Shown in pieces: positions 33,280 to 52,879 of a stretch of 64,000 nucleotides of DNA; positions within the stretch are counted from its first letter, which is position 1, and each line of letters begins with the position of its first letter. This DNA comes from Halolamina litorea. GTDB lineage: Archaea; Halobacteriota; Halobacteria; Halobacteriales; Haloferacaceae. A program made the translations under genes and the position numbers. The stretch is taken from assembly GCF_026616205.1 (NCBI RefSeq), contig NZ_JANHGR010000001.1:310001-374000 (forward strand), given 5' to 3'. Under the pieces are notes generated by a model, which did not search any database, was not told the DNA's origin, and saw nothing but the letters and a program-made list of their open reading frames with translations.

Positions 33280-33295
33280 AAGCCTAGGCCGGGAT
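33280..33295 (+). repeat. attL: 16-bp copy of the tRNA-Thr 3' end
   Basis: AAGCCTAGGCCGGGAT here is identical to 52864-52879, which is the 3' end of tRNA-Thr(GGT) read on the plus strand plus one flanking base. The copies are direct repeats, 19,584 bases apart, and the left one lies 48 bases before the integrase gene. This is the pattern left by tyrosine-recombinase integration into a tRNA gene. Confidence 0.9.
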
Positions 33296-33342: not shown

Positions 33343-34587
33343 ATGACCGACACCAGAGCCAAAGTCGAGTCCCTCCGCGAACGCATCCAGGACTCCAGCG
33401 ACCTCAGCGACGACGACTGCGCCGCTCTCCTTGAGTTCAGCAACACTCTGTATCTCCTGAAGTCGGAGTACACCGACTACCGTCACGAGAAGCTCCTGCG
33501 CCACTGTACGATCATGGCTGAGACCGTCGGCGGTCTCGCGGAATCTCTCCACGATAAGGAATCCGCGGAGGACCTCGTCCGATGGATCAACGTCACCTAC
33601 GAGAACGAGAACACCAACCACGACTACCGGACTGCTCTGCGGGTCTTCGGTAACCGTGTAACCGAAGAGGAAGGGATTCCGGACAGCCTTGAGTGGATCC
33701 CTTCGGGTACCTCCAACAGCCACAACCCCGTCCCGAACCCGGCCGATATGCTCGAGTGGGAAACCGACGTTATTCCGATGATCGAAGCCTGTCGGAATTC
33801 CCGGGATAAGGCTCTCCTCGCCGTCGCGTTCGACTCCGGCGCACGGAGCGGAGAACTCCAAGATCTCACCGTCGGGGACGTGAACGATCACCGACACGGC
33901 CTCCAGGTCATGGTCGACGGGAAGACGGGACAGCGCTCTGTCTCGCTCATCCCGAGCGTCCCCTACCTCCAGCGGTGGATGAGCGACCACCCGGATTCGA
34001 CCGACGGGAACGCTCCCCTCTGGTCGAAGCTCGATGACGCCGAGGAAGTTTCCTACCGGTGCTACCTCAACATCTTCAAGCGGGCGGGAAGGAAGGCCGG
34101 TATCTCGAAGCCGACGACACCGACCAACTTCCGTAAGTCGAACGCCACCTACCTCGCCGAGAAGGGGATGAACGAGTCGTACATCAACGACCGACAGGGC
34201 CGGACACGAGGGAGTAAGGCGACCGCGCACTACGTGGCGAAGTTCGGCGGTCGAGCCGAGGACGAGTACGCCCGCCTGCAGGGACTCGAAGTCGACGAGG
34301 AAGAACCGGAACCGATTGGTCCGGTCAAGTGCCCTCGATGCGGGAACGACACTCCCCGCCACGAGCCCGCTTGTGTTCACTGCCAGCAGGCGCTCAGTCA
34401 CGAAGGAGCTGAATCCATCGAAGAGGAAGAGCGAGAGGTCCGAGACGTATTCTTCCGATTCGCTCAGGAGAACCCCGGTGTCTTGGAGGACTACCAGAGA
34501 TCTCGGGACTTCACGGAACTTCTCGAAGAGAATCCGGAGCTCTTCGAAGACGCACAGTCGTTCGTTGAAGCGCTCGCGGATCAGTAG
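33343..34587 (+). CDS. Tyrosine recombinase/integrase with C-terminal zinc ribbon
   Basis: A 414-residue integrase. An N-terminal core-binding domain (about 1-110) precedes a catalytic domain with GARSGELQDL (Arg168), TNFRKSNATYLAEKG (Arg264) and HYVAKFG (Tyr297). The usual HxxR box reads T-x-x-R, an oddity. A CPRC...CVHC zinc ribbon (about 328-345) follows, common in haloarchaeal integrases, and a coiled acidic C-terminus. It would recombine the attL/attR sites found at the island ends. Confidence 0.9.
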   Translation: MTDTRAKVESLRERIQDSSDLSDDDCAALLEFSNTLYLLKSEYTDYRHEKLLRHCTIMAETVGGLAESLHDKESAEDLVRWINVTYENENTNHDYRTALRVFGNRVTEEEGIPDSLEWIPSGTSNSHNPVPNPADMLEWETDVIPMIEACRNSRDKALLAVAFDSGARSGELQDLTVGDVNDHRHGLQVMVDGKTGQRSVSLIPSVPYLQRWMSDHPDSTDGNAPLWSKLDDAEEVSYRCYLNIFKRAGRKAGISKPTTPTNFRKSNATYLAEKGMNESYINDRQGRTRGSKATAHYVAKFGGRAEDEYARLQGLEVDEEEPEPIGPVKCPRCGNDTPRHEPACVHCQQALSHEGAESIEEEEREVRDVFFRFAQENPGVLEDYQRSRDFTELLEENPELFEDAQSFVEALADQ

Positions 34588-36343: not shown

Positions 36344-37075
36344 CTACGCTTCCCGTTTCGCTTCCTCGTCTTCTCGAATTCGTCTAATCTGACGTTCTAA
36401 ATCTTCTCGTGAGCGGTCTTCCAGTTGATACATCGTTAGCGCTTTCTTGAACCGGGTCGTCGTCTCGCTGATCACGTCGTTGTGTGAGCGGTAGAGTTCC
36501 TCGGCACAGACCGCCGACGCATACCGATACCGCCGGAACGAACGATCCAAGACGAAGTTCGCTAGACGCTGTTTGTTGTAGAGGCGGTGTGCGTTCGTCA
36601 GATCGGCATCCTCTGGAGCTGCGTCGTACGGCACCTTGGTCAGCTCTGCGCCCCACCAGAGCCGACCCAGTGCGTTGGTGTACGGGTTCCGCCCCGCTCC
36701 GAGGAACTTCTCTTCGATGTCCTCGTTGTCTCCCCAACGATCTCGAACGAAGTCCGGATACTTGACGCTCGCGAGGTAGTGCCAGACGCCGGGCATCGCT
36801 GCCACACGATCCGGTATGTCGACTGCGAGACGGATCGTGGGTGCGACTGCTGAGTCAGCGATTGTCCCCCCAGACTGTGAACCAAAGTCTACGTGCTCCC
36901 TCACCGCCTCGATACGACGGTCTAGTAGATCTGTGTCTACGGTCCCGTCGACGTCCTCTCGTACGTGCTTCGAGATACCGTCTAGGGGGAACTCGTCGTA
37001 TGCCCCGGCGCGGATCTTCGATTGGACCTTGTTGTACCCTTCGTCGGTCAGCCGTTTGATTGGTTCAGTACTCAT
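36344..37075 (-). CDS. GHKL-operon partner 2 (LWW/KFLGAG family), operon A
   Basis: A 243-residue helical protein, third gene of operon A; it overlaps the previous gene by four bases. Two blocks are shared with the operon B gene at 45416: PGVWHYLASVKYPDFVRDRW (about 95-115) and EKFLGAGRNPYTNALGRLWW (about 122-141), then a conserved Arg/Cys helix (DRSFRRYRYASAVCAEEL). It resembles a bacterial family catalogued as DUF6339 (from memory). It has no recognisable nuclease motif. Confidence 0.75.
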   Translation of the reverse strand: MSTEPIKRLTDEGYNKVQSKIRAGAYDEFPLDGISKHVREDVDGTVDTDLLDRRIEAVREHVDFGSQSGGTIADSAVAPTIRLAVDIPDRVAAMPGVWHYLASVKYPDFVRDRWGDNEDIEEKFLGAGRNPYTNALGRLWWGAELTKVPYDAAPEDADLTNAHRLYNKQRLANFVLDRSFRRYRYASAVCAEELYRSHNDVISETTTRFKKALTMYQLEDRSREDLERQIRRIREDEEAKREA

Positions 37076-38091
37076 GGGCCGTCAAGTCGGATGTGGCCGT
37101 TCAGGTGGCTGCTCTGCTTGGTGTAGAGCTGAATAGCTTGGTTCAGATGGTCGGAGAACTCGCGGAGGTTCTCGGGTTGGACCGCATCGCTTAGCTTCGT
37201 CTCAGTCTCTTCTACATCCAAATCGGGATACAGATAGTCGTCGAGCTCGACTAGAAGTCCCTTCTGCCAGTCGTGTTCACACTCGCCGTTCTCAGCGACT
37301 GTGCCGGCGGTGTGGAGGACTAGTTGGACGTAGGTCATCGTCGATATCTCCGCCCCCACGATTTTCCGCATCCGCGGTCGGAAACCACCACCACGCCCAC
37401 TTTCGAGAACGTCAACGATCTCGTCGTGGTGACTATTGACGACGACTTTCGGATCCTGTCGGGATCCCTGTAGGGCGTGCACGAGCTCTTTGTTGAGCTC
37501 GTGGTCGTCATCGGAGAAGTCCTGATACATACTCGGGAACCCTTCTCCTTCGGTATCCATACTGTCAACTTTGACGACCCACGGCTTTCCAGCAGCTACC
37601 TGCATCCCGGCGGACGGTGCATAGGGAAGCCCTTCGTCACAGTCGTCTGTGCGGACGAGACGAGGCTCAAGTAGCACCTCGCCGTGGACGTTCTCACGGG
37701 CGAACGTGTGCTCGAAGTCGAAAGACCGAATCTTCCCGTTCTCGATCTCGTCGAGTGGCCCCCTCTTGACGACGTTCGGGAGCCTTCGCTGGGTGTCTAG
37801 CGTGTCGATTTTGACGATCACCTTGAGCGGTGGTTCGTCGTACTCGTCTTCGGGGACGAGAGTTTTAAGAGTGGACTCGTCGACGTTCACGTCGCCGACG
37901 ATCGTCACTTCTTCCCAACTCCCGTATCCAGTAACGTCTACGATTCGTTCGTCGTAATCCGGGGACCCGAGGCTGTCTCTGTCCCCGTTGAGGCCGAACC
38001 CCTCGATTCCGAGGTCCAACCCGGACTCGTCGTAGTGGTACGGCTGGCCCGCTTTACTCGTCGTCGACTCGCGTTGGTTCGAGCGTGGCAT
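37072..38091 (-). CDS. GHKL-operon partner 1, operon A
   Basis: A 339-residue protein, second gene of operon A, three bases after the ATPase stop. It is beta-rich in the first 150 residues and helical later. Blocks shared with its paralogue at 44391 include GKPWVVKVD (versus GEPWTVVVD), the PKVVVNSHHDEIVDVL stretch (versus PKLWINSDHSRIVDIL) and RMRKIVGAEISTMTYVQLVL. The conserved NS-x-H and Asp residues could be catalytic, but no known family was recognised. Confidence 0.75.
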   Translation of the reverse strand: MPRSNQRESTTSKAGQPYHYDESGLDLGIEGFGLNGDRDSLGSPDYDERIVDVTGYGSWEEVTIVGDVNVDESTLKTLVPEDEYDEPPLKVIVKIDTLDTQRRLPNVVKRGPLDEIENGKIRSFDFEHTFARENVHGEVLLEPRLVRTDDCDEGLPYAPSAGMQVAAGKPWVVKVDSMDTEGEGFPSMYQDFSDDDHELNKELVHALQGSRQDPKVVVNSHHDEIVDVLESGRGGGFRPRMRKIVGAEISTMTYVQLVLHTAGTVAENGECEHDWQKGLLVELDDYLYPDLDVEETETKLSDAVQPENLREFSDHLNQAIQLYTKQSSHLNGHIRLDGP

Positions 38092-38094
38092 CCT

Positions 38095-40083
38095 CTAATC
38101 GTCCTCCTCGTCGATCTCACCAGCAGGATTTCCTATCCCGCGGATCTTTGCTTTTGTACGGCTCAAAACACCGGTTTCGAAGTCCTTGTCCGGGACTGGG
38201 ACAGATTCCGCCTCGATCGACACGGAGTCGACGTCGGCCTCGATTGTGACGTGAATCTCGCCGTCGACTACCTCTCTCGAGATGCCGTGGACGTCCGGAC
38301 TCACGTAGATCCGGTCGATATCTACCTGATCCACCTCTTTTTCGTCGTCGTCTAGTTCGACGAGTTTCCCACGGATGTCCCATCGGTCGAATTCCTCGGT
38401 TGGCTCCACGGTAGCATCGAAACTCCACCGTTCCCCGTCGAAGGTCGGATTGGGTTGGGTAGGCCAATCGAACGCTGCCTTCACGGACGGTCCCGGACTC
38501 CCACTTTCGTCCACTCCTTCGTCGAAGGACGGCATGAACTCGTCGAGCGCTTTGACCCGTCTATCCGGATCGTCGCTGTCACGGACGACACCCTCGATCG
38601 CAGCCATGAGCCGTTCGCCCCCCAAGTTCCGAATCTCCTTGACGATCGTGCCGGAGTAGTGCTTCTTGAGGTAGTCGTTTCCACTCCCGATCCAGTCGTC
38701 GTGTTGCGTCGGCTCCGAACGCTTGAGGAACTGCTCAAGCGCCGCCTGCTCGGGCGTCGGGTCTGTCCCCGGCTCCGCCTGTGCTTCCCCACAGACGAGG
38801 AGAGCGATGAAGTCTCGGTCCCGGCTCGCTGCACGTTCCGCGGAGACGTAATCGACGACCATCTGCGCTCCACGGAACCGTGCGACTGTATTCAACCCGA
38901 TCCCCTCCTCAAGAATATCGTGTTCGGCAGGCGTGACTTGTCGGACGAAGAGATCGGCTGAGGTCTCTATTTCTCCGTGGGGAGATTCGACCGCCTCCGA
39001 GTTCTCCTTCGGGATCGTGACATCGACCGTCGTATGTACGATGTCGCCGGGTTCTTCGAGGACGTCAGACTCCTCCACGGAGAACTGCTCTTCGTAGGTC
39101 TGCATGAACGGCGCGACGCTTGGTGCCGCGTCGGAGTCCACTTTCTCCTGGCCCGACTCGGGAGTCTCCACGTAGACCTCCAACTCGTCTCGGGACATCG
39201 CTGGCCAGAAATACGTCGCCGCAGCCTCCCGGATCTCCTCGGACACCTCTTCTAAGTCAGGGTTGATGGATTCTCCGGGAATACGGAAGCCAACGATACC
39301 GATACTAGTGCCAGTAGCGCCCGTCTCTCGGTCAACGTGAAGCTTCTCCGCGAGCGACGAAGAGCCGTCGTCGTCCCAGATCGAGGGTGGTCTACCGAGC
39401 CGGTCGATCTCACCGACGTGGTCCAGCCCGAACCATCCCTCGTTGGTGTACGAGAGGTTGTCGTCCGTTTCATGATCCCGAGCAGGCAGAACAGATCGGC
39501 CGACGAGCCGAGGCGGGGTCTGACCGTGCTCCGGTGTCGTCCGTGGTTTAGAATTGAAAAGAACGGTCGAGACGCCGGAGAAGGCCCACAAGACCGTCTT
39601 TCCGACTCCGTGGCTCCCGCCGGAGCTCTCGTCCGGCTTGTTGGTGCCACCGAAGTCCTTGACGAGAGAGCCGTAGGGCTTCGACTCGTCGGTCTCAGCA
39701 CCTTCTAGGCCGGTCGTGTTCCGGTCTTCGATAGTGAGTATCACGAGCTCGTCACCGTCGAACTCGTTGAGGAACTGTTGGAGTCCGGGATCCCGAACCT
39801 GCTCGTTCTCGGTTGCCAGTTGGAGCTGCTTTCGGAGCTTCGACTCCCACTGGAGAGTCTCAAGGTACTCTCGGAGATCGTCACCGGTCAGGCGCTGGAA
39901 CCTGAAGAAGACCTGAGCGGGCTGGGTGTCGCTGATTCCCTGGTCGTTGGCGTTCTGTAGGACCTCTCTGACGAACGTTGAGAGCTCACTATCAAACGCC
40001 TTCTCCGTCGGAATCGTGTGGTAGCTCGTTCGGCCAGATTTCTGCGTGGGGAACTTCCACGTGCTACTCACGTCACCGGTCAC
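38095..40083 (-). CDS. GHKL (MutL/MORC-like) ATPase, operon A
   Basis: A 662-residue protein. The N-terminal Bergerat-fold signals are STFVREVLQNANDQG (Glu40, Asn44), VILTIEDRNTTGL (Asp120 of a modified D-x-G box) and GGSHGVGKTVLWAFSG (about 155-170). The C-terminal 450 residues are unassigned and should hold transducer and effector regions. GTG at 40083 or 40071 could be the start. It heads an operon with two partner genes and has its own promoter at about 40150. ATP-driven clamping on DNA is expected by analogy to MutL/MORC. Confidence 0.85.
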   Translation of the reverse strand: MTGDVSSTWKFPTQKSGRTSYHTIPTEKAFDSELSTFVREVLQNANDQGISDTQPAQVFFRFQRLTGDDLREYLETLQWESKLRKQLQLATENEQVRDPGLQQFLNEFDGDELVILTIEDRNTTGLEGAETDESKPYGSLVKDFGGTNKPDESSGGSHGVGKTVLWAFSGVSTVLFNSKPRTTPEHGQTPPRLVGRSVLPARDHETDDNLSYTNEGWFGLDHVGEIDRLGRPPSIWDDDGSSSLAEKLHVDRETGATGTSIGIVGFRIPGESINPDLEEVSEEIREAAATYFWPAMSRDELEVYVETPESGQEKVDSDAAPSVAPFMQTYEEQFSVEESDVLEEPGDIVHTTVDVTIPKENSEAVESPHGEIETSADLFVRQVTPAEHDILEEGIGLNTVARFRGAQMVVDYVSAERAASRDRDFIALLVCGEAQAEPGTDPTPEQAALEQFLKRSEPTQHDDWIGSGNDYLKKHYSGTIVKEIRNLGGERLMAAIEGVVRDSDDPDRRVKALDEFMPSFDEGVDESGSPGPSVKAAFDWPTQPNPTFDGERWSFDATVEPTEEFDRWDIRGKLVELDDDEKEVDQVDIDRIYVSPDVHGISREVVDGEIHVTIEADVDSVSIEAESVPVPDKDFETGVLSRTKAKIRGIGNPAGEIDEEDD

Positions 40084-40155: not shown

Positions 40156-40224
40156 TCAAGGGATAATTGTTGTGAGCCACCACGTTTAGCGCTCGAGCTG
40201 CAGTTTCGAACTTCAGGTATACTC

Positions 40225-41154: not shown

Positions 41155-42261
41155 TTAGTCAGCGATCGACGGCTCCGGTGCGGACTCGGCTTCGGTGTCG
41201 TAGTGTGAGAGGATCGCTTCACCGACACGCTGACCGAGTAGCGGCGGTACGGCGTTCCCGATCATCCTTCCGAGGTGGGTAATCGACGCCTCGTCCCAGT
41301 CTTCGACGAACTCGTAGTCCTCGGGGAACGTCTGGATCATCGCTCCCTCGAGCAGCGAGAGCGCACGGTCTTGGTCGGTGTCGTAGTGTCCGAATCGACC
41401 GCTCCCGTAGTTGTAGAACTGCGTCGTCATCGTCGGCGCCGGTTCGTCGGGCGACATGCGGCCGTACGGCGCCCTGTAGCTCCGGCCGCTGGCTTTCTTG
41501 TGGCAGTCGAGGAGGAGATGTTCTTTCCCCTCCTCCTCCCAGACTGTCCAGTCCTCCCCGGGTCTCATGTTCCGGATTCGCTCTACGTTCAGTTCGGAGA
41601 GGTCACGGGCTTGGTGCAGCTTTCGACTGGAATCTTCTTCGCCGTTGTCGAGAGCCGGCAAGTGGCCGATAGCGTCGCGGACGGTCGGATACTCCGATTC
41701 GTCTCCCCTCTCCGGCTCCCCAAGTTCGATCGTCCCGTCTCGAGAGGCGATCAGGACCCACCGTTTGCGCTTCTGTGGGATTCCGTACTCCGGGCAGTAG
41801 ACGTTCTTGTCGTCGTCGCTGTTCACCGAGTAGCCCATTCGCTCCAGAGTCTCTTCGAAGATCTCGTACGGTCGGTGGTTCCTGACCTCGAAGACGTTCT
41901 CCATCACCACCACGTCGGGGCGAACGTACTCGACGATGTCACGGAATTCGCCCAGCATCCCGTACTTGTCGTGCTGGCTACTGTCCCCGCCGTGGTTTAG
42001 TGGGGAGAACGGCTGACACGGTGCACAGCCGGCGAGCACTCGCACGTCGGCGTCCCGTTCGAACTGTGCGGCGACTCGCTCGGGGTTCTTCGCGAGCGGA
42101 CGGATATCTGTCAGGCGGAAGTCCGCGTCGTTGTTCTCCTCGTACGGGTACTTGCACGCGGGATCGACGTCGATCCCGACAGAGACGTCGACGCCGGCGT
42201 CTTCGAGGCCCCTCGTGAGGCCGCCGGCGCCACAGAAGAGATCGACGGCGGATACTTTCAT
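41155..42261 (-). CDS. Cytosine-5 DNA methyltransferase (Dcm family)
   Basis: A 368-residue C5 methylase with all core motifs: I DLFCGAGGLTRG (7-18), IV GCAPCQPFSP (Cys82), VI VMENV (119-123), VIII GIPQKRKRWVLIASR and X GRMIGNAVPP. The target-recognition region lies between VIII and X. TATA-like GATTTAAC about 30 bases upstream gives a short leader. It should protect host DNA at the sequence recognised by the associated system. Confidence 0.95.
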   Translation of the reverse strand: MKVSAVDLFCGAGGLTRGLEDAGVDVSVGIDVDPACKYPYEENNDADFRLTDIRPLAKNPERVAAQFERDADVRVLAGCAPCQPFSPLNHGGDSSQHDKYGMLGEFRDIVEYVRPDVVVMENVFEVRNHRPYEIFEETLERMGYSVNSDDDKNVYCPEYGIPQKRKRWVLIASRDGTIELGEPERGDESEYPTVRDAIGHLPALDNGEEDSSRKLHQARDLSELNVERIRNMRPGEDWTVWEEEGKEHLLLDCHKKASGRSYRAPYGRMSPDEPAPTMTTQFYNYGSGRFGHYDTDQDRALSLLEGAMIQTFPEDYEFVEDWDEASITHLGRMIGNAVPPLLGQRVGEAILSHYDTEAESAPEPSIAD

Positions 42262-42498: not shown

Positions 42499-44391
42499 AT
42501 GAGCCCCGAAAACGTCGCACAGGAAGTGGGGTGGCACTTCTACGACGGCGGCCAGAGCGCCCCTCGCTTCGGTGGAGACCCGACGAAACACGCAGTCGAC
42601 CACGACACGGGGAGCTTCGTCCGAGAGGTACTCCAGAACGCGAACGATCAAGCCCTGCCGAACGAGATGCCGGTCGAGGTGACGTTTCGACTGATCGAGC
42701 TCTCGGGCGACGAGCTCCGCGAGTTCTTGGACGCCATCCGTTGGGGAACCGAACTACGAGAGCGGATCGGGGCAGTAGCCGAATCCGACAGAGGACGAGG
42801 GTTCAAACAGTTTCGGGAACAGTTAGAGAGCGACGATCCCTCTCTCCGGCTGCTCGTCGTCGAGGACCGAAACACGACGGGCCTCACCGGGGACTGGGAC
42901 GAGGACTCGAACTACGCCGCCCTCGTGCGGGACGAACTCTACAGTCAGAAGCAAGACGAGACGGCGGGTGGCTCCTACGGCCTCGGGAAATCCGTCCTCT
43001 GGACGTTCTCCGGAGCCTCCACAGTCGTATTCAACTCGTTCCTGAGCGAACCTTCCGAACGGGGGGAGCGCCAACGTCTCATCGCCCGAACCAAGCTTCC
43101 GACACACAGCTTGAGTGGCGACGAAACGGAGTATCAAGGGGCAGGTTGGCTCTGTACTATCGACGACTCCGAAGAGGACCCGAAGCCGCAGTCCTTGTGG
43201 GGATCGACGGCAGAATCACTGGCCGAGCGGCTCGGCGTCGGCCGGCCGGCTACTCCCGGAACGAGTGCGATGGTCGTCGGGTTCCGCGATCCGGCGAGGG
43301 ACCACACTCCGAGTCTGGACAGGCTCGGCCGCGAGCTCGTCGACGCCGCCGCGAAGTACTTCTGGCCCGCGATGTACCGCGACGACCTCGTGGTGAAAGT
43401 GCAAGTCGGCTCCGAGACGACCGAGGTGGACGTAGACGACCACTCCGCGGTCCAGCCGTTCGTCGACGCGTACGCGAACCGTTACAACGGCGAGACACAG
43501 CTCGAGACACCCGGAGACGTGGCCGGTCGAGACATCAAGGTGAACCTCCCGAAGAACGACGACGGGACGGAGACCGAGAGTGGCCCCGTCCGGCTCGCCG
43601 CACGTCTCGCCTCTCCCGTCGACGACCCGACGCTCCGGAACCACGTCGCGATGTTCAGAGGGGCGGGGATGGTCGTGAAGTACTACGACCAGAGTCGGGT
43701 ATCCTTCGGGGATCGGAACTTCTTCGGAGTCCTCGCCGCAGGCACCGCTCGATCTACCGGTGCCCCTCGGACGTCGGACGAAGAGATCGACCGGTTCCTT
43801 CGATTCGCCGAGCCGCCCGAGCACGACGACTGGCGTTCGACGGAGAACTTGAAACAGCAGTACAAGCAGGGGTACCGGAAGGCGATCGTCAACCTCGAAG
43901 CAGACATCCGAGAAGAGCTTCGGAACCTCGTCTCTCGGAGCGGACGAGGCGAACGAGACCTCCCGGAGAACGTGTTGAAGAAGTTCCCAATCCACGGTCA
44001 GGGGCGCCAGAGTAGTTCGCCGGCCAGCGCCCGATCGTTCGAACTCGACGGGACGGCGTTCTTCGAACGGGACCGGTGGCGGTTCAGCGGAAGCGTCGAG
44101 CCGGAGGCAGACGACCACTCCGGCTGGACGGCCGAAATATCCCTCACCGGAGTCGGGGAAGACGGGACGAAGTATCGACAGGTCCCGGTAGCGTCGGTCG
44201 ATATCGATGTGGAAGGTGTCGATATAGTGGAAGAGGACGGTGCGATGGTCCTGAGAGCTTCGCCGAGTGTTGGAAGAGTAGAGTTCCGTGGAGAGTCACG
44301 ACCGATCGGTCACGTGGACTTCTTCGACGGATCTGTCGGTGAGACTCGCCTGGAGATCGACGCGGAAGTCCGACTCGGGGGTGACGACTGA
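42499..44391 (+). CDS. GHKL (MutL/MORC-like) ATPase, operon B
   Basis: A 630-residue paralogue of the operon A ATPase. Key residues: SFVREVLQNANDQA (Glu43, Asn47), LLVVEDRNTTGL (Asp123) and AGGSYGLGKSVLWTFSG (about 156-172). The two ATPases also share TYFWPAMSRDEL/KYFWPAMYRDDL and RFRGAQMVVDYV/MFRGAGMVVKYY, so the unknown C-terminal half is conserved as well. It starts operon B, transcribed away from operon A, and overlaps the next gene by one base. Confidence 0.85.
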   Translation: MSPENVAQEVGWHFYDGGQSAPRFGGDPTKHAVDHDTGSFVREVLQNANDQALPNEMPVEVTFRLIELSGDELREFLDAIRWGTELRERIGAVAESDRGRGFKQFREQLESDDPSLRLLVVEDRNTTGLTGDWDEDSNYAALVRDELYSQKQDETAGGSYGLGKSVLWTFSGASTVVFNSFLSEPSERGERQRLIARTKLPTHSLSGDETEYQGAGWLCTIDDSEEDPKPQSLWGSTAESLAERLGVGRPATPGTSAMVVGFRDPARDHTPSLDRLGRELVDAAAKYFWPAMYRDDLVVKVQVGSETTEVDVDDHSAVQPFVDAYANRYNGETQLETPGDVAGRDIKVNLPKNDDGTETESGPVRLAARLASPVDDPTLRNHVAMFRGAGMVVKYYDQSRVSFGDRNFFGVLAAGTARSTGAPRTSDEEIDRFLRFAEPPEHDDWRSTENLKQQYKQGYRKAIVNLEADIREELRNLVSRSGRGERDLPENVLKKFPIHGQGRQSSSPASARSFELDGTAFFERDRWRFSGSVEPEADDHSGWTAEISLTGVGEDGTKYRQVPVASVDIDVEGVDIVEEDGAMVLRASPSVGRVEFRGESRPIGHVDFFDGSVGETRLEIDAEVRLGGDD

Positions 44392-45416
44392 TGGTGGACT
44401 CGAAGAGCCAGAAGCTACGACAGACGGCTCTGCCGTACCCCTACCGCGAGAACGGGCTCTCACTGGAGCTTCGCGGGTACCAGATCGACGACGAACAGTC
44501 GGTCGAGTTCGACGAGGAGAGCGAGAGCACGACCGTCGATCTGGCGGTCGACGAGAGCGACCCGTGGGAACGCGCGACTCTCCGAGGGACAGTAAATTTC
44601 CCCGAGGAAGTCGTGGAGTCCGTCTACCCACCGGACGAGCGCTCGTCCCCGCCGGGGAAACTCTACGTGGCCGTTCGCTGCCCGGACGCGATCTACCGTG
44701 ACCGAGTAGACGTAGACTCCGCTGGTACGGGAGACGACATCGATGTCGGCGTGCACGAGGTAGAGATCCCCCTCAGGAGTGACTATCTCCGCGGTGAAGT
44801 TCAGCTACAGCCCTTCCTCGTTCGTTCCTCGGAAGGAGAGAGCGACGAAACCTTCGCGACGACGCCGAACGTTCGGCTTGCGAGCGGGGAGCCGTGGACC
44901 GTCGTCGTCGACGAGGAGGAAGGGAGCGGGAACAGCCTCATCGACGGCGAGGAAGCAGAGTTCAGCGAGCACGACCACCTCCCCGGCGAGAAGCGGCTGT
45001 ACCACTTGGACTTCAGGAACGCCGAGAGTCCGAAGCTCTGGATCAACAGCGACCACAGCCGGATCGTCGACATCCTCCACGCGAACGGCTCCGTCGGGGC
45101 GGAGGCCCGAATGCGGGACGTGGTTCTCGACCAAATCCAGCAGGGTGTCTGGACACAGCTCGTGGTACGGGCGATCTCCGACGTTGACGAAGAGGGCGAG
45201 CCACGACACGACTGGGAACAGGCGGTCCTCAACATCTTCGCACGAGATCTCACCGACCAAGACGACGTGACGGAGGCGTCACTTCGGCTCCGCGAAGAAC
45301 TGGACGATCCAGAGGGTGTCGCCGTTCTCATGGAGCGTCTGGATGGATCGATCCAAGACTACGTCGACCCGCGAGACCAACTGATCGACCTCGTCGAAGA
45401 AGGACTTCAGATATAA
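44391..45416 (+). CDS. GHKL-operon partner 1, operon B
   Basis: A 341-residue paralogue of 37072-38091. The N-terminal half is beta-rich; the conserved core is GEPWTVVVD, LYHLDFRNAESPKLWINSDH, SRIVDILHANGSVGAEARMR and QLVVRAISDV. Start and stop overlap both neighbours, showing strict stoichiometric coupling with the ATPase. Function unknown; a nuclease, adaptor or DNA-recognition role is possible. Confidence 0.75.
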   Translation: MVDSKSQKLRQTALPYPYRENGLSLELRGYQIDDEQSVEFDEESESTTVDLAVDESDPWERATLRGTVNFPEEVVESVYPPDERSSPPGKLYVAVRCPDAIYRDRVDVDSAGTGDDIDVGVHEVEIPLRSDYLRGEVQLQPFLVRSSEGESDETFATTPNVRLASGEPWTVVVDEEEGSGNSLIDGEEAEFSEHDHLPGEKRLYHLDFRNAESPKLWINSDHSRIVDILHANGSVGAEARMRDVVLDQIQQGVWTQLVVRAISDVDEEGEPRHDWEQAVLNIFARDLTDQDDVTEASLRLREELDDPEGVAVLMERLDGSIQDYVDPRDQLIDLVEEGLQI

Positions 45417-46108
45417 TGAGCGAACAACGATTGCGACGGTTGACCGCCGACGGACGCCGACTGATCGGAGAAGGGTTCCTCAAGGGAGAGGAGGACGCGA
45501 TCGCCGGCGAAGAGCTCGAGGAGTACCTCGAACTGGAGCCGTCCGGGGAACGAGTCCGGCTCGGCGAGTTAGACAGCGAGCTTGAGTCGATAATGGATTC
45601 ACACCGTCGGTTCGACACGGCGATCGACGCTGCGGCAGCACCTGCAGTCAGGGACTCGCTGACGATGTCTCGTCGCGTCGCGGCAGATCCCGGAGTCTGG
45701 CACTACCTCGCGACGGTCCGTTACCCAGACTTCGTCCGCCACCGATGGGAGTTCACTAGCAAGAAAGCGATGACCGAGAAGTTCCTCGGCGCGGGAACGG
45801 ACATCTACTCGAACGCACTCCACCGTCTCTGGTGGATCGCCGAACTCACCCGCGAGGGTGACGATTACACGCTGACCGAAGAAGTGCTCTCGAACCAGAC
45901 CCTGGCGAACAAGATATTCGACCGCTGGTTCGCCCGCTACGAGCCGGCTGCGAAGGTCTGTTCGGAGAAGCTACTCGGGGAACCGTCGGGTGTCGTCGAC
46001 GAGGCGACCCGTCGGTTCAACCACGCACTCACCAACCTCCAACTAGAGGGGCTGGACGAAGACGACGTAGAGCGGGTGTTGGACCGGATACTCGACGACG
46101 TCGAGTGA
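45416..46108 (+). CDS. GHKL-operon partner 2 (LWW/KFLGAG family), operon B
   Basis: A 230-residue helical paralogue of 36344-37075. It keeps DPGVWHYLATVRYPDFVRHR, EKFLGAGTDIYSNALHRLWW and the DRWFARYEPAAKVCSEKL helix, while the N-terminal 80 residues diverge. Conservation of Trp, Tyr, His and Arg in the first block suggests a ligand or nucleic-acid site. It is the last gene of operon B, convergent with the glycosylase gene 10 bases beyond. Confidence 0.75.
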   Translation: MSEQRLRRLTADGRRLIGEGFLKGEEDAIAGEELEEYLELEPSGERVRLGELDSELESIMDSHRRFDTAIDAAAAPAVRDSLTMSRRVAADPGVWHYLATVRYPDFVRHRWEFTSKKAMTEKFLGAGTDIYSNALHRLWWIAELTREGDDYTLTEEVLSNQTLANKIFDRWFARYEPAAKVCSEKLLGEPSGVVDEATRRFNHALTNLQLEGLDEDDVERVLDRILDDVE

Positions 46109-46118
46109 GAGCGGTCCA

Positions 46119-46820
46119 CTACCCACTAGTAGCGTAGACGCAGTACTCGGAGGCGAAGCAGTCGTCGAACCTCGGGCTCTCTTTGGTACATACGATCGCT
46201 CCGAAGTCGAGCAGTCCGAGATTGTACCGTCTAACGTCGGCCGGGTCCTCTGGCAGCATCTCGGTACAGAAATCCTCCCTATCTGAACGGCTGTCCGGGA
46301 ACCGATCGCCGAATACGCGGCTGTAAACCCGTTCGACGTTGCGGTCCAAGATAGGGAGCTTGGAGCGGTCTGCGAAACAGAGAGTCGCGTTCGCGACGTA
46401 GGGACCGACTCGTTCGAGTTCTCGGAGTTGCCCGGTAGTGTCCGGTAGATCGTCTACTGACCTAGCGATCGACTTCAACGCCCGAGCACGCATACGCTGG
46501 AAGCCGAGTGGATCGATCACCGACACGAGATCTTCCTCGTCGGCCTCCTCGATCGCCTCTAGGGACGGGTACCGGTCGACGAACTCCGGATACACGTCTG
46601 CAACGTTGTCCGCAGGCGTCTGAGTCAGAAAGAACTCTGCGACGAACACCTCGTAGCGCGACCGTTCCTGCTCTCGCCACGGGTACTCCCGGACGTTCTC
46701 GGTCGCCCACTGGAGCAGCGAGTCACGGAACGCACTAGCCGCCTTGGGGAGACGCATGGTCGTCACTCGGTATAGTTGCTCGCCGTGAGTTAAGAAATCG
46801 GGCTCTGTCGGGAGGCTCAA
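46119..46820 (-). CDS. HhH-GPD mismatch DNA glycosylase (Mig/MutY-like)
   Basis: A 233-residue protein with the helix-hairpin-helix ELERVGPYVANATLCF (Tyr in the MutY/Mig position rather than Lys as in endonuclease III) and catalytic-Asp segment LPILDRNVERVYSRVFG. PWREQERSRYEVFVAEFFLT matches MutY/Mig. The cluster loop has only C211-x9-C221-x5-C227, one cysteine fewer than the usual [4Fe-4S] motif. Next to C5 methylases, its likely job is to repair T:G mismatches from deaminated 5-methylcytosine, as with Mig.Mth. Confidence 0.8.
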   Translation of the reverse strand: MSLPTEPDFLTHGEQLYRVTTMRLPKAASAFRDSLLQWATENVREYPWREQERSRYEVFVAEFFLTQTPADNVADVYPEFVDRYPSLEAIEEADEEDLVSVIDPLGFQRMRARALKSIARSVDDLPDTTGQLRELERVGPYVANATLCFADRSKLPILDRNVERVYSRVFGDRFPDSRSDREDFCTEMLPEDPADVRRYNLGLLDFGAIVCTKESPRFDDCFASEYCVYATSG

Positions 46821-46924
46821 CGGCTAACAGGAGTGGGATTACATCTCGTGAAGTGCAGTGGAACGGCACACTAGTTAGGAAGCGAGTTGCTTGATGGAAA
46901 CTGCGGATATGTGCCTGTTCCCAG

Positions 46925-47182
46925 CTAGACGGTCTGAGTTTCTCCGCAGTGGGGGCACGTCACCCACTTGCTGTCTACCATGTGTCCTGCCGCTGCCCCG
47001 GCTATACCTCCGGGAACAGTACCTGCGATAGCACCAAGTGGACCACCCGCAATTCCGAAACCAGAACCGATGGCGGCCCCGGACCCTGCGGCTGCGATAG
47101 TTATGGCCCTCTTCGACGCGGGATTCTTCTTGGGGTTGAACTCGCCGGAACAGCCCTCACAGGAAGTTTTCACTTCACCCAT
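46925..47182 (-). CDS. Zinc-ribbon/glycine-zipper membrane protein, 85 aa
   Basis: CEGC near the N-terminus and CPHCGE near the C-terminus make a split four-Cys zinc ribbon. Between them lies a glycine-zipper helix (GAAIGSGFGIAGGPLGAIAG, then TVPGGIAGAAAGHM) that could insert in a membrane. ATG at 47182 is preferred to TTG at 47191. It lies among defence-type genes; membrane disruption is one possible activity, not demonstrated. Confidence 0.7.
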   Translation of the reverse strand: MGEVKTSCEGCSGEFNPKKNPASKRAITIAAAGSGAAIGSGFGIAGGPLGAIAGTVPGGIAGAAAGHMVDSKWVTCPHCGETQTV

Positions 47183-47300
47183 GCCAGTCAATCTCTAGGT
47201 TTGAACTTAACCTTTGGGTGATGTATTCGAAAGAGTAGCCCAGCAGTTCTCACTTCGTGATCAACATCTGAGTCAGAAAGCGAGGTTCAACGTAGACGGG

Positions 47301-47441
47301 TCACTCCGACACTTCAATTACGGCCACGGTCACCTCTTCATCGGCGTACTCTGATCCAAGTGTAATCCTGCCACGGGAGTCGGTCTTTTTCGTCACGATG
47401 TCGCGGGGGATTACTACCCGGGTATCTTCGGCTTCCTTCAT
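47301..47441 (-). CDS. 46-aa AbrB/SpoVT-like protein
   Basis: MKEAEDTRVVIPRDIVTKKT followed by DSRGRITLGSEYADEEVTVA matches a compact swapped-hairpin AbrB domain. The ATG overlaps the stop of the 107-residue upstream gene by four bases. The pair has toxin-antitoxin-like architecture, with this as the possible antitoxin. Confidence 0.65.
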   Translation of the reverse strand: MKEAEDTRVVIPRDIVTKKTDSRGRITLGSEYADEEVTVAVIEVSE

Positions 47442-47761
47442 TCGTCGCCACCGAGCCTCTCCATCATTTCGATAGCAGTCTTGAGACAGTCCTCTTCTCC
47501 GTCACAGGGCTCACTCTCCACGTCTCCGACCCGTCGCCACATCCGCGGGTTCTTCTCGTCGCTATCTCCTTCGAAGGACACCTCTTCGGCACCTACGACA
47601 GAGGGATCGTCGATAGAGTACCCGACACGGAGCTCCTTCTCGGGATGTACCCACTCGCGAGCAAACAGATTCCCGCCGGTGTGGGCCAGTTCGCCACCCG
47701 CCCATCCAGCGGGTGCGACGTTCACCTCGTCGCCGTGTTCGCTGATCTCGTCGGCGTTCAC
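47438..47761 (-). CDS. Acidic island protein coupled to an AbrB-like gene, 107 aa
   Basis: A small acidic protein (VAPAGWAGGELAHTGGNLFA; REWVHPEKELRVGYSIDDPS) with a C-terminal Cys pair and helix. No family recognised. Overlap with the AbrB-like gene suggests a functional pair. Confidence 0.6.
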   Translation of the reverse strand: MNADEISEHGDEVNVAPAGWAGGELAHTGGNLFAREWVHPEKELRVGYSIDDPSVVGAEEVSFEGDSDEKNPRMWRRVGDVESEPCDGEEDCLKTAIEMMERLGGDE

Positions 47762-47846
47762 ATCTTCGGTCTACTACCCACACCTACTTAGCTACTTCCC
47801 ATATTTGCCCACACCTGTCCGAGTGGTGGCAGCACTACTTCGGGGG

Positions 47847-50093
47847 CTACGAAAAGTCGTCGAGGCTGGTTCCCCTAGTATAACCGCCGTCAGAACCGGG
47901 CTCGTCGTTGACCGTAGTCACTCCTTCATCGTCTGTTTCCAGATATTCGTCCTCAACCGATTGATCACTAACGAACTCCTCAATCCGGTTTGCAGTCCGT
48001 TTCCCGATACCTGGAACGTTTCCGTCTAACGTATCCACGAAGAAATCTGGGTTATCCAGTTCGTCGTAGAAAGCCGTCAGCTTCTCCCAAAGGGATCCGT
48101 CTGGTAGCTGATCGACTCCGGGAATATCGGGTCGGTCGAGATACTCTCGAAGGTTCCGAACACGGTGGCGGCCTACCCCTCTGATGTTCTCGACGAGCGG
48201 GACTTCGTCGCGACGAACGCCGCGCTCGATTCGGAACGTCATGATGTTTAGCCACTCCGGTCGGTGAATCTCCGGGGAGGCATCGATGAGGTATTTCGTC
48301 GCGTCAAGTGTATCCGCGACACGCCTCGCATCAGAGGAAATGTACGCGCCGTCGATGTCCGTCCGTTTCTCGATCTCCCGAGTATCGAGGTTCTTGACCC
48401 AGTACCAGCGGAGAATCCCGGCCGTGATACCGTATTCGTCGACAGGTAGTTCGTGCTCCTGTAGTAAGCCTTCCAGCTCGTCAGAACAGCTACTGTCGAT
48501 TTTTCGGTCGGCGAGGATGGTTGTCTGGTAGACGAGGTTGAGCCGAGTGAGGTTTCCCGTACCCAGGTCTTCGAGCCAGTCGTAGAAACTTCGAATTGCC
48601 GCCAACGTCGCGTTGCTGAACGAGTTGAAGGAAAATTCGATGGTCCCCTCGCCGAGCGGAGTCGGTTGGAACTGTCGGGCCGTGTCCTTCTCGGTGATGA
48701 ACTCTAGATCTAGGAGCCAGTCGGCGGCTTCTCTGAGCCGCTCGTTGAGCCGCTCGTCTCTCGAGGAGTGCTCCCTTCCCCACGCACCGACCTGTTTCAT
48801 CTGCTGCCAGTACAGCATCTCTTTGACGAAGGCCTCGATCTCGTGGGGAGTGTCCCAGCCGGTCGTGACCAGCTCCAGCAGAAGCCACCGGAAGCGCTCG
48901 TCGTTCTCGATGTGGGTCGTTACTGGCTCCAGTTCTCTGTGGGGTTCGAAGTACCGCTCGATCGTCTCCGCTGGATCATCGGTTAGAGTGAACGCGTAGC
49001 CCTCGTCGTAGCCGTAGCCCGGTCTGGCTGCTCGGCCGATCCACTGAACGTACTCGTACACTCCGACGAACTCCGGACCTCGCTTGATGTCGGCGACGAT
49101 GACCGACTGAACCGGCGCATCGAAGCCGTAGGCGATTGTCGTCGTAGCGAATAGGCACTTGATTTCCCCCTCTTCGTAGAGGTCGACGATCCACACCTTC
49201 ACGTCCTGCGGGAGATCGCTGTGGTGAAACGCCACCCCAGCGTCCATCATCCGAGCCAGATCTTCGAGCGTGCTGGTCAACTCTCCCTGGCTCTTTCGCT
49301 CCATTTCCTCCAAGAAATTCCGGTTAGAGACGTCGGCGAATATTCGAGTCTTCGCCACTGCTTCCGCTCGGGACTCTGTCCACGATTTGGCGTAGTTGAA
49401 GACCAGGAAGGGTGCTTTGTCGCGTTCTGAGCGGATGAAGCTGGTCAGGGCGTCTTTCTTCTCTTGGGGACCGACGTTGACTACCTCCTCCTGAATTTCG
49501 ATCTCACGCCCTTCTGGACTCACCGTAAGGTCGGCGTCCATCCAGTCAGCGAGTTCCTGTGGGTTCCCGAGAGTGGCACTCATCGAGAAGAGCTCGATTC
49601 CTTCATACATCGCGGCGGCGATCGCTTTCTCGATACCTGGGCCGCGAAAGCCGCCGTATATCTCGTGGAAGTCGTCGAGGACCACTAGATCGAGATTTCG
49701 AGCGCTACCCTTGTCCCGAAGAATTGCCCGGTAGAACGAATCGAACGTCGCGACGATTACGTCGCCGGACTGGTACGCACCCGGCCCCGAATGGATCTGG
49801 TACTCGTCGCTACCCCACTCCTGCATCGACTCTCGCTTGTCTCGAACCAGCTGGCGCGACGGAACCAAATACGCGACACGGCCTTCTCGGTCTAGGTGTT
49901 TCTTCGTGACCGCCTCGGCACAGAGAGTTTTCCCGTTCCCTGTCTCTGCGACCAGAAGATGGTTTCCGGACTCCAGTATCCCGTCCTCGAAGGCCAACCG
50001 CTGGGTCTCCTTGAGCGACTCGTACCCGTGGGCGCTCATTACCTCGTCGACGATCTCGGTATCGTCGTCCGGTAGGTCAGCTATCTCGCTCAT
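47847..50093 (-). CDS. Ski2/Hel308-like superfamily 2 helicase
   Basis: A 748-residue helicase. Walker A is VAETGNGKT (about 48-56), motif II reads LDDFHE (140-143, DDFH in place of DExH), motif III is SATL (172-175), and FATTTIAYGFDAP with QWIGRAARPGYG form motifs V and VI. A Hel308-like winged-helix region follows, and two helix-hairpin-helix elements (RGVGRHRVRNL; VPGIGKRTANRI) near the C-terminus bind DNA. The following exonuclease gene upstream overlaps its start by four bases, so the two are coupled. A defence or repair role is likely. Confidence 0.85.
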   Translation of the reverse strand: MSEIADLPDDDTEIVDEVMSAHGYESLKETQRLAFEDGILESGNHLLVAETGNGKTLCAEAVTKKHLDREGRVAYLVPSRQLVRDKRESMQEWGSDEYQIHSGPGAYQSGDVIVATFDSFYRAILRDKGSARNLDLVVLDDFHEIYGGFRGPGIEKAIAAAMYEGIELFSMSATLGNPQELADWMDADLTVSPEGREIEIQEEVVNVGPQEKKDALTSFIRSERDKAPFLVFNYAKSWTESRAEAVAKTRIFADVSNRNFLEEMERKSQGELTSTLEDLARMMDAGVAFHHSDLPQDVKVWIVDLYEEGEIKCLFATTTIAYGFDAPVQSVIVADIKRGPEFVGVYEYVQWIGRAARPGYGYDEGYAFTLTDDPAETIERYFEPHRELEPVTTHIENDERFRWLLLELVTTGWDTPHEIEAFVKEMLYWQQMKQVGAWGREHSSRDERLNERLREAADWLLDLEFITEKDTARQFQPTPLGEGTIEFSFNSFSNATLAAIRSFYDWLEDLGTGNLTRLNLVYQTTILADRKIDSSCSDELEGLLQEHELPVDEYGITAGILRWYWVKNLDTREIEKRTDIDGAYISSDARRVADTLDATKYLIDASPEIHRPEWLNIMTFRIERGVRRDEVPLVENIRGVGRHRVRNLREYLDRPDIPGVDQLPDGSLWEKLTAFYDELDNPDFFVDTLDGNVPGIGKRTANRIEEFVSDQSVEDEYLETDDEGVTTVNDEPGSDGGYTRGTSLDDFS

Positions 50094-50839
50094 CGATCGA
50101 TTTCGTCGATCGGATAGTGGAACTCACGGTCCAACTGCTCACCACCGAGTGAGTCATAGAGGGCGAATAAGTCGGCGATATCGCTGATGCTGTAGTCGTA
50201 GAGGAGTCGCTTAAGCTCTCTGTGTGTCTTCGTTTCTTCTATTCCGGCCTGTACGCCGTCGACGTACGTTTCACCGAGGACCCGACCCACGTGTCCTCCT
50301 TTGACGAACTTGTCCTCGATTCCTAACCCGTCCCAGTAGTCGTCGTGGAAATCGTAGTCGTTGTACCAGACACTGTCGTTATCGATGTCCTCAAGCTTGT
50401 ACGCCAGCCAGTCGGGAAGTACGGGTTGGTCTTCCTGAAGTTCGTCTTCGTGACGTGCAGCGGCGGCCTTCGCAAGGTCAATGTGGTTCGGGAGTGCCGA
50501 TTGCAGATCTGATGAGAGACCGGTCACATCTCCAGATTGGTCGAGTTCTTCTGCCCAGTTCATCAGATGCTTCAGGTCGAAGTAGGCGCCGTTGTAGGTC
50601 AGCGTCCGTTCCACGTCCTTCCCGTGGCACCACTCGATCATCCTGTGGAATAGATCAACCGTGTACTTCGCTTCCCACCCACCACGGCGGAAGAGGACAG
50701 TAGTGTCCGGCTCTTCGAGTGTCCCGTCCCTGTAGGCCAGTCCGACAGAAATCCATTCGTAGTACCGGGTGTCGTTATCGTCACGACCGGGTTCCTCAAA
50801 CGGGCTCGCCGTCTCGATGTCTAGTGCTAAGTCCCCCAT
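50090..50839 (-). CDS. DEDD-family 3'-5' exonuclease (RNase H fold)
   Basis: A 249-residue protein with LALDIETASPFEE (Asp7, Glu9), LTYNGAYFDLKHLMNW (central Asp) and a C-terminal YSISDIADLFALYD, the pattern of RNase-H-like DnaQ/DEDD exonucleases. It is first in the operon with the helicase; a TATA-like GTTTTATC about 30 bases upstream implies a leaderless or short-leader mRNA. Together they could unwind and degrade invading DNA or RNA. Confidence 0.78.
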   Translation of the reverse strand: MGDLALDIETASPFEEPGRDDNDTRYYEWISVGLAYRDGTLEEPDTTVLFRRGGWEAKYTVDLFHRMIEWCHGKDVERTLTYNGAYFDLKHLMNWAEELDQSGDVTGLSSDLQSALPNHIDLAKAAAARHEDELQEDQPVLPDWLAYKLEDIDNDSVWYNDYDFHDDYWDGLGIEDKFVKGGHVGRVLGETYVDGVQAGIEETKTHRELKRLLYDYSISDIADLFALYDSLGGEQLDREFHYPIDEIDR

Positions 50840-51136
50840 ATATGTCGACCATTCCGATAGGAAACATGATAAAACTCTCGGACAACCCGGATCGTCTACC
50901 CGCGTTTCGAGTGGAGGTGGGTGGAAACCGGAGCGGAGTATTTTGATTTCGTGCCCTTAGGCACACCCCTAACGGGAATCAAAACCCCTCGGGTTGAATT
51001 CCCGTGAGACGCCAATCAAGCACGACCAAGATCGTCTGTCTCGAGAGCACAAGACCAGCCGCTCAACGGCCTATTACGAGCAGAATTCCCCTCAAAACGA
51101 GTGCTCAGATAGTGTTGCCACTCACCAGCCGACTCG
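50840..51136. other. 297-base spacer with two consecutive hairpins
   Basis: It contains the leftward helicase operon promoter at its left end and two hairpins: GTGCC/GGCAC at 50951-50964 and ACGGGAAT/ATTCCCGT at 50972-51005 with an inner CAA..CCC/GGGTTG stem. These could be a terminator for the gene to the right, which ends at 51137 reading leftward, or a small RNA. No gene is seen. Confidence 0.45.
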
Positions 51137-52780
51137 CTATCCGGTGTTCAGATATCGCCAGGCGTCCGCGATCCCGCCGTTACGGAACTGAATCTGCGCC
51201 GTTCGGAAGCGCTCTTCGGGGAGCCCAGCCTCTTTCCAGATACGGAACCCCTCTTTGATCCCTCGGCGTGTCTGCTTTCCGGGCTCACGGACTCGAAGCT
51301 TCATGCGCGCCTCGCGCTGATTCAGAGCGTCGTCGACATCAATTCCGTGGCGTGCCGCCCAGGCGATGAAGACGCTCATCGTCTCTTTCATCCCTTTCTC
51401 GGCAGCCCGGATGGCCTTCGCCCCGGTCTCTGCGGCCCGCTTGACGGCTTCCTCTGCCTCCTGCACAGCGTCGTGGACCAGTTCGGCGACGTAGTTCGAC
51501 CGAAGGCTGACCTTCGCGTACTCGCGGACGACGAGATCGTCGATACCGCGCAGTGCCCGTCTGACGCTCTCAACGTGGCGGCCGTGCTCGTCTGCGATAT
51601 CCGCCGGCGAAACGACACCGCCGTCGGTCACGAGCGTCCGTAGGCTCTCCCACTGGACCGGACTGAGGCCGTCGGCTAGGTGCCGAATGACGACGCTCTC
51701 CTGAGTGCTCTTGATGCGCGTCATGTCCAGCTCGATCGGGTCGGGTCCTCTCTCGGTCGTCTCGACCTCGAAGTACGCGTCCTGAACGAACGGACCGGGC
51801 CCTCGCGACGGGGCAACGTCGAGACCAGCATCGGCGAGCACGGACAGGACCGTCTGGTTGAGTTCGCGCTCCAACTGGGCCAACTCTTCGGGGGTAACTC
51901 CCAGCTTCCCGTCCCACCGACTGACTTGGTACGACGCACCGACCTTCGGATGGGCGAGAGGCGAGTCGGTGCCCTGATTGAGGGCTTCTCTCGCGTAGTA
52001 GTGCTTGACCTCCTTCGGGATCAAGTGATCCGGGAACGCCTCTCGGATACGACGAGGACCGAGTGTGACGGTGTGGTAGTACCCGGGCAGGTTCCGACCG
52101 TGATCGTCGTCGTCGTTCTGCACGACCTTCCGGTAGCCTTGCCGGTCGGATTCGAGTAGGTGGCCCATCGACGCTATCGGTCCTTCGCGCGCGTGCACCG
52201 GCCCACTGGCGTCCCGATGAACGCGGACGTACCGCTCAGCGTCCTGTATATTGCTGTATTCGTGCGGTTCCTCGAAGTAGTCGGCTCGGATACCGACCGC
52301 CAACGCAGCCGACTGAAGGAGCGGCAGATAACGGTGGAAGTCGATGTTCGACCCCTGAATCTTCACGTTGACCGCCTCGTGAATCCCGTCCGGGACCGAG
52401 TACTCGGAAACCGACCCGTCACGTTTCTCGACCTTCATCCCCTGCCACCGGGGCGTGATATGGACGTTGAAGCTCTGCTCTCCGACCGGGTCCTCCTCCC
52501 CGTGCCGGCCGACCTTCAACCGGAACTCGCGCATCTCGTCGAGGCGCCACTCCGTGCCGGTCGGAAGCCGGGGGCCGGGGTGAACGACGTTGCCCTCCTG
52601 GTAGTACAGCGTGACCGTCCACCGCTCGCCCCGGTCGTGGAATTCGGCACGCTGGCTGCCGCCACCGGCCTTCACTCGCGAGTCAGCAGCGAAGAACGGA
52701 GCCAACCCCTTCGCGTCGAAGAGGTAGTTCGCCGCGAACTCGTGGGGCGCCGGCTTGACGTAGCCGGTCACGCGCACCAC
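51137..52780 (-). CDS. Haloarchaeal mobile-element protein (DUF7845-like), 547 aa
   Basis: A large protein with a conserved KPAPHEFAANYLFDAKGLAP start, beta-rich first half, a winged-helix-like segment (VVSPADIADEHGRHVESVRR, about 400-420) and a helical C-terminus. It sits beside the tRNA attachment site, as similar proteins do in other haloarchaeal elements (family label from memory). GTGs at 52780, 52777 or 52771 could be the start. A role in replication, maintenance or excision is possible. Confidence 0.65.
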   Translation of the reverse strand: MVRVTGYVKPAPHEFAANYLFDAKGLAPFFAADSRVKAGGGSQRAEFHDRGERWTVTLYYQEGNVVHPGPRLPTGTEWRLDEMREFRLKVGRHGEEDPVGEQSFNVHITPRWQGMKVEKRDGSVSEYSVPDGIHEAVNVKIQGSNIDFHRYLPLLQSAALAVGIRADYFEEPHEYSNIQDAERYVRVHRDASGPVHAREGPIASMGHLLESDRQGYRKVVQNDDDDHGRNLPGYYHTVTLGPRRIREAFPDHLIPKEVKHYYAREALNQGTDSPLAHPKVGASYQVSRWDGKLGVTPEELAQLERELNQTVLSVLADAGLDVAPSRGPGPFVQDAYFEVETTERGPDPIELDMTRIKSTQESVVIRHLADGLSPVQWESLRTLVTDGGVVSPADIADEHGRHVESVRRALRGIDDLVVREYAKVSLRSNYVAELVHDAVQEAEEAVKRAAETGAKAIRAAEKGMKETMSVFIAWAARHGIDVDDALNQREARMKLRVREPGKQTRRGIKEGFRIWKEAGLPEERFRTAQIQFRNGGIADAWRYLNTG

Positions 52781-52863: not shown

Positions 52864-52879
52864 AAGCCTAGGCCGGGAT
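52864..52879 (+). repeat. attR: 16-bp repeat within the tRNA-Thr 3' end
   Basis: It is identical to 33280-33295. It covers the tRNA's 3' acceptor strand and part of the T-arm, so the tRNA stays functional after integration. Excision between the two copies would release a 19,584-bp circle. Confidence 0.9.

What the first reader, a model, noticed from the sequence alone, without database searches (positions are those of the whole stretch)
47847..50839. Coupled Hel308-like helicase with DDFH motif and DEDD exonuclease
The helicase has DDFH rather than DExH in motif II and two C-terminal helix-hairpin-helix elements, and its start overlaps a DEDD exonuclease. Located in a defence island, this two-gene unit could be a separate unwinding-and-degradation system.
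Basis: partly seen in the sequence, partly recalled or inferred. Interest (0 to 1): 0.65.

Follow-up and report, generated by a model that had tools for sequence, protein, structure and literature searches.

The report
Mobile archaeal helicase–exonuclease gene pair
A salt-loving archaeon carries, on a small mobile DNA island packed with likely antivirus genes, an overlapping gene pair for a DNA-unwinding enzyme and a DNA-trimming enzyme that also travels as a unit in six related genomes, so it is probably an undescribed defence module, though nobody has tested it.

Summary
The 748-aa helicase (47847-50093, -) has the Hel308 fold and motif II DDFH. The 249-aa gene before it (50090-50839, -) overlaps its start by 4 nt (ATGA) and encodes a DEDDy exonuclease with a DnaQ/PolB-proofreading-like fold. 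DDFH is not peculiar to this copy: it is invariant in all 26 family members, paired or not. The two HhH elements are ordinary Hel308 features. The pair is real and conserved: nuclease beside helicase in 7 of 7 genomes with helicase identity >=62%, across at least four families. More distant relatives (19, <=55%) lack the nuclease and are often plasmid-borne. In the paired set the helicases fit one clade, but the nucleases do not (AU p 5e-53), so the slot was refilled with divergent members. All seven pairs lie beside restriction, BREX or defence-like genes. Here the pair sits on a 19.6-kb integrative island (integrase, att repeat in tRNA-Thr) that is absent at the same site in three congeners. 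In four pairs a DUF7845 gene precedes the nuclease. Best reading: a mobile helicase-exonuclease defence module, working somewhat like Hachiman or MrfAB but a member of neither. Function is inferred only; repair or mobile-element replication remain open.

The parts
47847..50093 (-). Hel308-like SF2 helicase, 748 aa, DDFH subfamily
49665..49676 (-). Motif II DDFH codons (residues 140-143)
   Evidence: invariant in 26/26 family members; DEVH in own canonical Hel308; coordinates computed from the ORF
48138..48212 (-). First C-terminal HhH (residues 628-652), Hel308 domain 5 type
   Evidence: model helices; aligned to own Hel308 VRGVGRKRARRL
47964..48050 (-). Second C-terminal HhH (residues 682-710)
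   Evidence: model helices; sequence GIGKRTANRI
47853..47864 (-). Conserved C-terminal LxxF tail (LDDF, residues 744-747), PIP-box-like
   Evidence: conserved in every family member with an intact C-terminus; own Hel308 ends QASLGDF; P. furiosus Hjm has a C-terminal PIP box (PMC2636818)
50090..50839 (-). DEDDy 3'-5' exonuclease-like protein, 249 aa, PolB/DnaQ fold
50813..50821 (-). Exo I DIE (D7, E9)
   Evidence: invariant in 22 sequences
50576..50578 (-). Exo II Asp (D88, in YNGxxFD)
   Evidence: invariant; aligns with PolB Exo II
50180..50194 (-). Exo III YxxxD (Y216-D220)
   Evidence: invariant Y216 and D220
50090..50093 (-). ATGA stop/start overlap of nuclease and helicase
   Evidence: 4-nt overlap in 5 of 7 pairs; gaps of 3 and 39 nt in the other two
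51137..52780 (-). DUF7845 (PF25227) protein with a weak HTH match; frequent third gene
   Evidence: PF25227 directly upstream of the pair in 4 of 7 loci
33343..34587 (+). Tyrosine integrase of the island
   Evidence: PF00589 E 1e-14
33280..33295 (+). Putative att repeat, integrase side (AAGCCTAGGCCGGGAT)
52864..52879 (+). Putative att repeat at the 3' end of tRNA-Thr (tRNA 52865-52936, -)
42499..46108 (+). PDC-M33-like candidate defence operon, copy 1 (630, 341, 230 aa)
   Evidence: PADLOC PDC-M33A E 2e-26, M33C E 2e-12; middle gene by position only
36344..40083 (-). PDC-M33-like candidate defence operon, copy 2 (662, 339, 243 aa)
   Evidence: PADLOC PDC-M33A E 1e-23, M33C E 6e-6; middle gene by position only
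41155..42261 (-). C5-cytosine methyltransferase, DrmMII-like
   Evidence: Pfam E 5e-45; PADLOC 523 bits

Best explanation
It is a mobile two-gene defence module, often with a DUF7845 gene as a third. A Hel308-type helicase, presumably moving 3' to 5' like Hel308, loads on forks, D-loops or 3' ends of replicating or damaged invader DNA, perhaps held at the clamp by its PIP-like tail, and exposes single strands. The DEDDy exonuclease encoded just upstream in an overlapping frame digests them from 3' ends. Shown here: both folds, catalytic residues, overlapping genes (which suggest translational coupling), co-inheritance, nuclease replacement, defence-rich surroundings and mobility. Inferred: a shared transcript, physical partnership, polarity, substrate, antiviral outcome, and the role of DUF7845 (possibly regulation).
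For: Nuclease beside helicase in 7/7 genomes of one clade; ATGA overlap in 5/7; paired helicases compatible with one clade (p 0.35) while the nucleases reject one (p 5e-53), so the slot has been refilled; defence-type neighbours in all seven loci: PDC-M33 x2 and methyltransferase, type IIG, BREX A/B/C, SNF2 helicase plus methyltransferase-like genes, type I RM, MkoA-like helicase plus PD-(D/E)XK; island with integrase and tRNA att repeat, empty in three congeners; intact motifs I, III, V, VI; Hel308 fold; PolB-like exonuclease fold.
Against: No experiment. Helicase relatives at <=55% identity lack the nuclease and often sit on plasmids, some near orc1/cdc6 genes, so the helicase has a life of its own. 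DDFH puts Asp where Hel308 has the catalytic Glu, and the Hel308 ratchet Trp is missing, so activity could be weak or altered. Gene neighbourhood is indirect evidence, and no random-locus control was run beyond one Hel308 locus.
Confidence: 0.55

Rival explanations
1. A DNA-repair unit comparable to bacterial MrfAB (3'-5' helicase plus 3'-5' exonuclease for mitomycin damage), carried as accessory cargo on islands.
For: Same two activities in one operon; MrfAB works in nucleotide excision repair in B. subtilis (PMC12458937, PMC11194089); H. volcanii Hel308 mutants are sensitive to cross-linkers (PMC7776575).
Against: Rare (6 of 394 genomes), on a mobile island here with an empty site in congeners, beside restriction and BREX genes; the cell already has its own Hel308.
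Confidence: 0.2
2. A mobile-element maintenance function: the helicase helps plasmids or integrative elements replicate, and the nuclease was added in one lineage.
For: DDFH relatives occur on several haloarchaeal plasmids, some near orc1/cdc6 and parA.
Against: The paired clade lies beside restriction-type genes rather than replication genes; no relatives in IMG/VR.
Confidence: 0.15
3. The nuclease and helicase are merely neighbours; each is a separate accessory gene and the nuclease works alone or with other ATPases.
For: The nuclease family occurs in 92 of 394 genomes, mostly away from this helicase and beside other genes, such as a 462-aa protein, pAgo or YprA-type helicases.
Against: 7/7 adjacency in one helicase clade, overlapping reading frames, and retention of a family nuclease through replacement.
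Confidence: 0.1

Closest known systems
Archaeal Hel308/Hjm
   Same: All five domains align full length; same fold; domain 5 HhH and a C-terminal LxxF tail; motifs I, III, VI comparable.
   Different: Far below NCBIfam cut-offs (window helicase 172 vs 1200 and 183 vs 887 bits; own Hel308 1173 bits to the latter model); DDFH not DExH; motif V YGFD; ratchet Trp absent; accessory and mobile; paired with a nuclease.
Hachiman (HamAB)
   Same: Two-gene nuclease and Ski2/Hel308-like helicase defence system; HamB is functionally close to Hel308 (PMC12278908).
   Different: HamA is a DUF1837 D-E(X)K nuclease, here a DEDDy exonuclease; HamB model matches cover only the helicase core, and the cell's own Hel308 scores higher to them (175 vs 63 bits).
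MrfAB (YprA/YprB)
   Same: 3'-5' helicase plus DnaQ-superfamily exonuclease in one operon.
   Different: MrfA is a YprA-family helicase (weak match); MrfB is DEDDh, here DEDDy; different helicase family.
Family B polymerase proofreading domain
   Same: DIE, YNGxxFD and YxxxD motifs, fold.
   Different: Stand-alone 249 aa, no polymerase domain; Pfam PF03104 not matched.

Membership tests
Hel308 helicase | Five-domain Hel308 fold | tested here: met
   Foldseek top hits Hel308/Hjm; hhalign over domains 1-5
Hel308 helicase | NCBIfam Hel308 equivalog score | tested here: not met
   172 bits vs 1200 and 183 vs 887; own Hel308 passes the latter at 1173
Hel308 helicase | DExH motif II | tested here: not met
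   DDFH in 26/26
Hel308 helicase | Ratchet-helix Trp in domain 4 | tested here: not met
   absent in the aligned region of all members that cover it; alignment-based
Hel308 helicase | 3'-5' DNA unwinding at forks | not testable with these tools
   needs protein
Hachiman | HamA DUF1837 nuclease | tested here: not met
   no PADLOC hit for the nuclease; DEDDy fold instead
Hachiman | HamB helicase | tested here: not met
   core-only hits, weaker than those of the cell's own Hel308
MrfAB | YprA-family helicase | tested here: not met
   Hel308/Ski2 hits far stronger than YprA
MrfAB | DnaQ-superfamily 3'-5' exonuclease partner | tested here: met
   DnaQ-like fold, but DEDDy rather than DEDDh
DEDDy exonuclease (PolB/DnaQ superfamily) | DxE, Exo II Asp and YxxxD on an RNase H-like fold | tested here: met
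Antiviral defence system | Protection against virus or plasmid | not testable with these tools
   context only
Integrative genomic island | Integrase, att repeat in tRNA, empty site in relatives | tested here: met

The most novel reading that the evidence does not exclude
An undescribed archaeal defence system in which a Hel308-derived, clamp-tethered sensor helicase with an Asp in place of the catalytic Glu works with an interchangeable DEDDy exonuclease, showing that the Hel308/HELQ repair lineage was recruited to immunity in archaea separately from Hachiman.
Probability: 0.3. Interest if true: 0.78.

Novelty: new variant of a known kind. Interest (0 to 1): 0.58.

Why it matters
Helicase-nuclease pairs are a recurring plan in prokaryotic immunity, and the Hachiman authors proposed a link between HamB and the repair helicase Hel308. 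A Hel308-type helicase that is really part of a mobile defence cassette in archaea would make that link testable in Haloferax volcanii. The invariant DDFH motif gives a natural experiment on the catalytic Glu of SF2 helicases, and the replaceable nuclease slot shows modular assembly.

Tried and rejected
DDFH as a mark of the paired unit: rejected, invariant in unpaired relatives too. Two HhH elements as unusual: rejected, Hel308 trait. PADLOC HamB hits as evidence for Hachiman: rejected, the own Hel308 scores higher. Virus-borne origin: no relatives in IMG/VR; phage hits of the helicase are weak helicase-core matches and the nuclease has none. hhalign of the nuclease to the own PolB exonuclease single sequence was weak (one search used the wrong strand); the profile search against PDB PolB was significant. 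DUF7845 as a strict third component: not claimed, it is in 241/394 genomes and beside only 4/7 pairs. Literature searches found no description of the pair, but the library is partial. No relatives outside the order among 295 genomes of the phylum at E<=1e-90.

Full report
Observation. The two ORFs exist exactly as described. The nuclease stop and helicase start overlap by ATGA. The helicase has PDB Hel308/Hjm matches (E 2e-46) and aligns full length with the same genome's own Hel308 (hhalign probability 100, E 2e-49). Its AlphaFold model (pLDDT 83) has Hel308/Hjm as its best eight PDB matches. It scores far below the NCBIfam Hel308 equivalog cut-offs (172 vs 1200; 183 vs 887 bits), whereas the own Hel308 passes one of them (1173 bits). 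It is therefore a Hel308-derived paralogue.

Sequence signatures. Across 26 family members motif II is always DDFH and motif V reads YGFD; motif I is TGNGKT in all 25 that cover it. The Trp of the Hel308 ratchet helix has no counterpart in the aligned region. Every member with an intact C-terminus ends with an LxxF tail. The own Hel308 ends QASLGDF, and P. furiosus Hjm carries a C-terminal PIP box needed for PCNA binding (PMC2636818). The tail is thus a plausible but degenerate PCNA motif. The two HhH elements are in the own Hel308 as well, so they are not distinctive.

Nuclease. No Pfam or NCBIfam family covers it (the one weak Pfam match is below its cut-off). An alignment of 22 relatives leaves D7, E9, D88, D121, Y216 and D220 invariant. 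The model is confident (pLDDT 94) and matches DnaQ and archaeal PolB exonuclease domains. A profile search finds the PolB Exo II motif (E 1e-4). This is a stand-alone DEDDy 3'-5' exonuclease by fold and motif; activity is inferred.

Conservation of the pair. Among 394 genomes of the order, the nuclease family occurs in 92 and helicases at E<=1e-60 in 16. All six genomes with a helicase at >=62% identity have the nuclease immediately upstream on the same strand. A seventh, Salinadaptatus halalkaliphilus, came from the genome-contig scan. Named carriers also include Halorientalis salina and Halomicrobium katesii. Relatives at 55% and below, 19 in the tree set, are not paired. Trees: the seven paired helicases are compatible with one clade (AU p 0.35), but their nucleases are not (p 5e-53). 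The nuclease partner has been exchanged, or the pair assembled more than once, while the arrangement was kept.

Surroundings. The window pair lies in a low-GC stretch bounded by a 16-nt repeat, AAGCCTAGGCCGGGAT, next to an integrase at 33280 and at the 3' end of tRNA-Thr at 52864. Three congeners have the flanking genes joined at that tRNA with no island; two others carry a different insertion of about 13 kb there, and in a third no left-flank gene lies within the stretch read. Neighbours include two PDC-M33-like operons and a methyltransferase. The other six pairs have a type IIG-like enzyme, BREX BrxA/B/C, SNF2 helicase with methyltransferase-like genes (two loci), type I restriction, or an MkoA-like helicase with a PD-(D/E)XK nuclease. 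In two other loci the cassette also ends close to a tRNA-Ala gene. A DUF7845 gene directly precedes the nuclease in four of seven loci; DUF7845 is common in the order (241/394), so its role is open. The own Hel308 locus gave no comparable defence cluster, a control of one.

Mechanism. Hel308 unwinds 3' to 5' with a preference for forks and D-loops (PMC7776575). I infer that this helicase opens such DNA on invaders and that the coupled exonuclease removes 3'-ended strands. Hachiman shows that a Hel308-like helicase can license a separate nuclease (PMC12278908). Whether the pair attacks invader DNA, repairs DNA, or serves a mobile element cannot be decided from sequence.

Verdict. Real, conserved and mobile; a new variant of the helicase-nuclease kind; function not shown.

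Noticed in passing
window 36344-46108: Two PDC-M33-like three-gene operons in opposite directions flank a DrmMII-like cytosine methyltransferase and a 260-aa ORF on the same island.
   Followed up: partly
window 33280-52879; L162-L167: tRNA-Thr integration hot spot: empty in three congeners, a different roughly 13-kb insertion in two, and no left-flank genes within reach in a third.
   Followed up: partly
L071, L072, L074, L007, L008, L093: The same nuclease family forms another close unit with a 462-464-aa protein (annotated ATP-binding in L007, no Pfam hit for the L074 copy), in two of these loci (L007, L093) followed by a pAgo-family gene.
   Followed up: partly
L079 9595-17414: The nuclease lies beside a YprA-type helicase, a 515-aa protein and a pAgo (1153 bits to PADLOC pAgo).
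   Followed up: no
L010/L098: A divergent nuclease relative (25%) lies between a plasmid cluster of two DEAD/DEAH helicases, an RNase H-like protein and a tyrosyl-DNA phosphodiesterase-like gene on one side and UvrD-type and PD-(D/E)XK genes on the other.
   Followed up: no
window 46119-46820: A short MutY/HhH-GPD glycosylase-like gene (MutY 136 bits vs cut-off 287) sits on the island.
   Followed up: no
L107, L108, L109: Unpaired DDFH helicases (45-47% identity) sit in a syntenic block of mostly small same-strand genes in three genera, possibly an integrated element.
   Followed up: no
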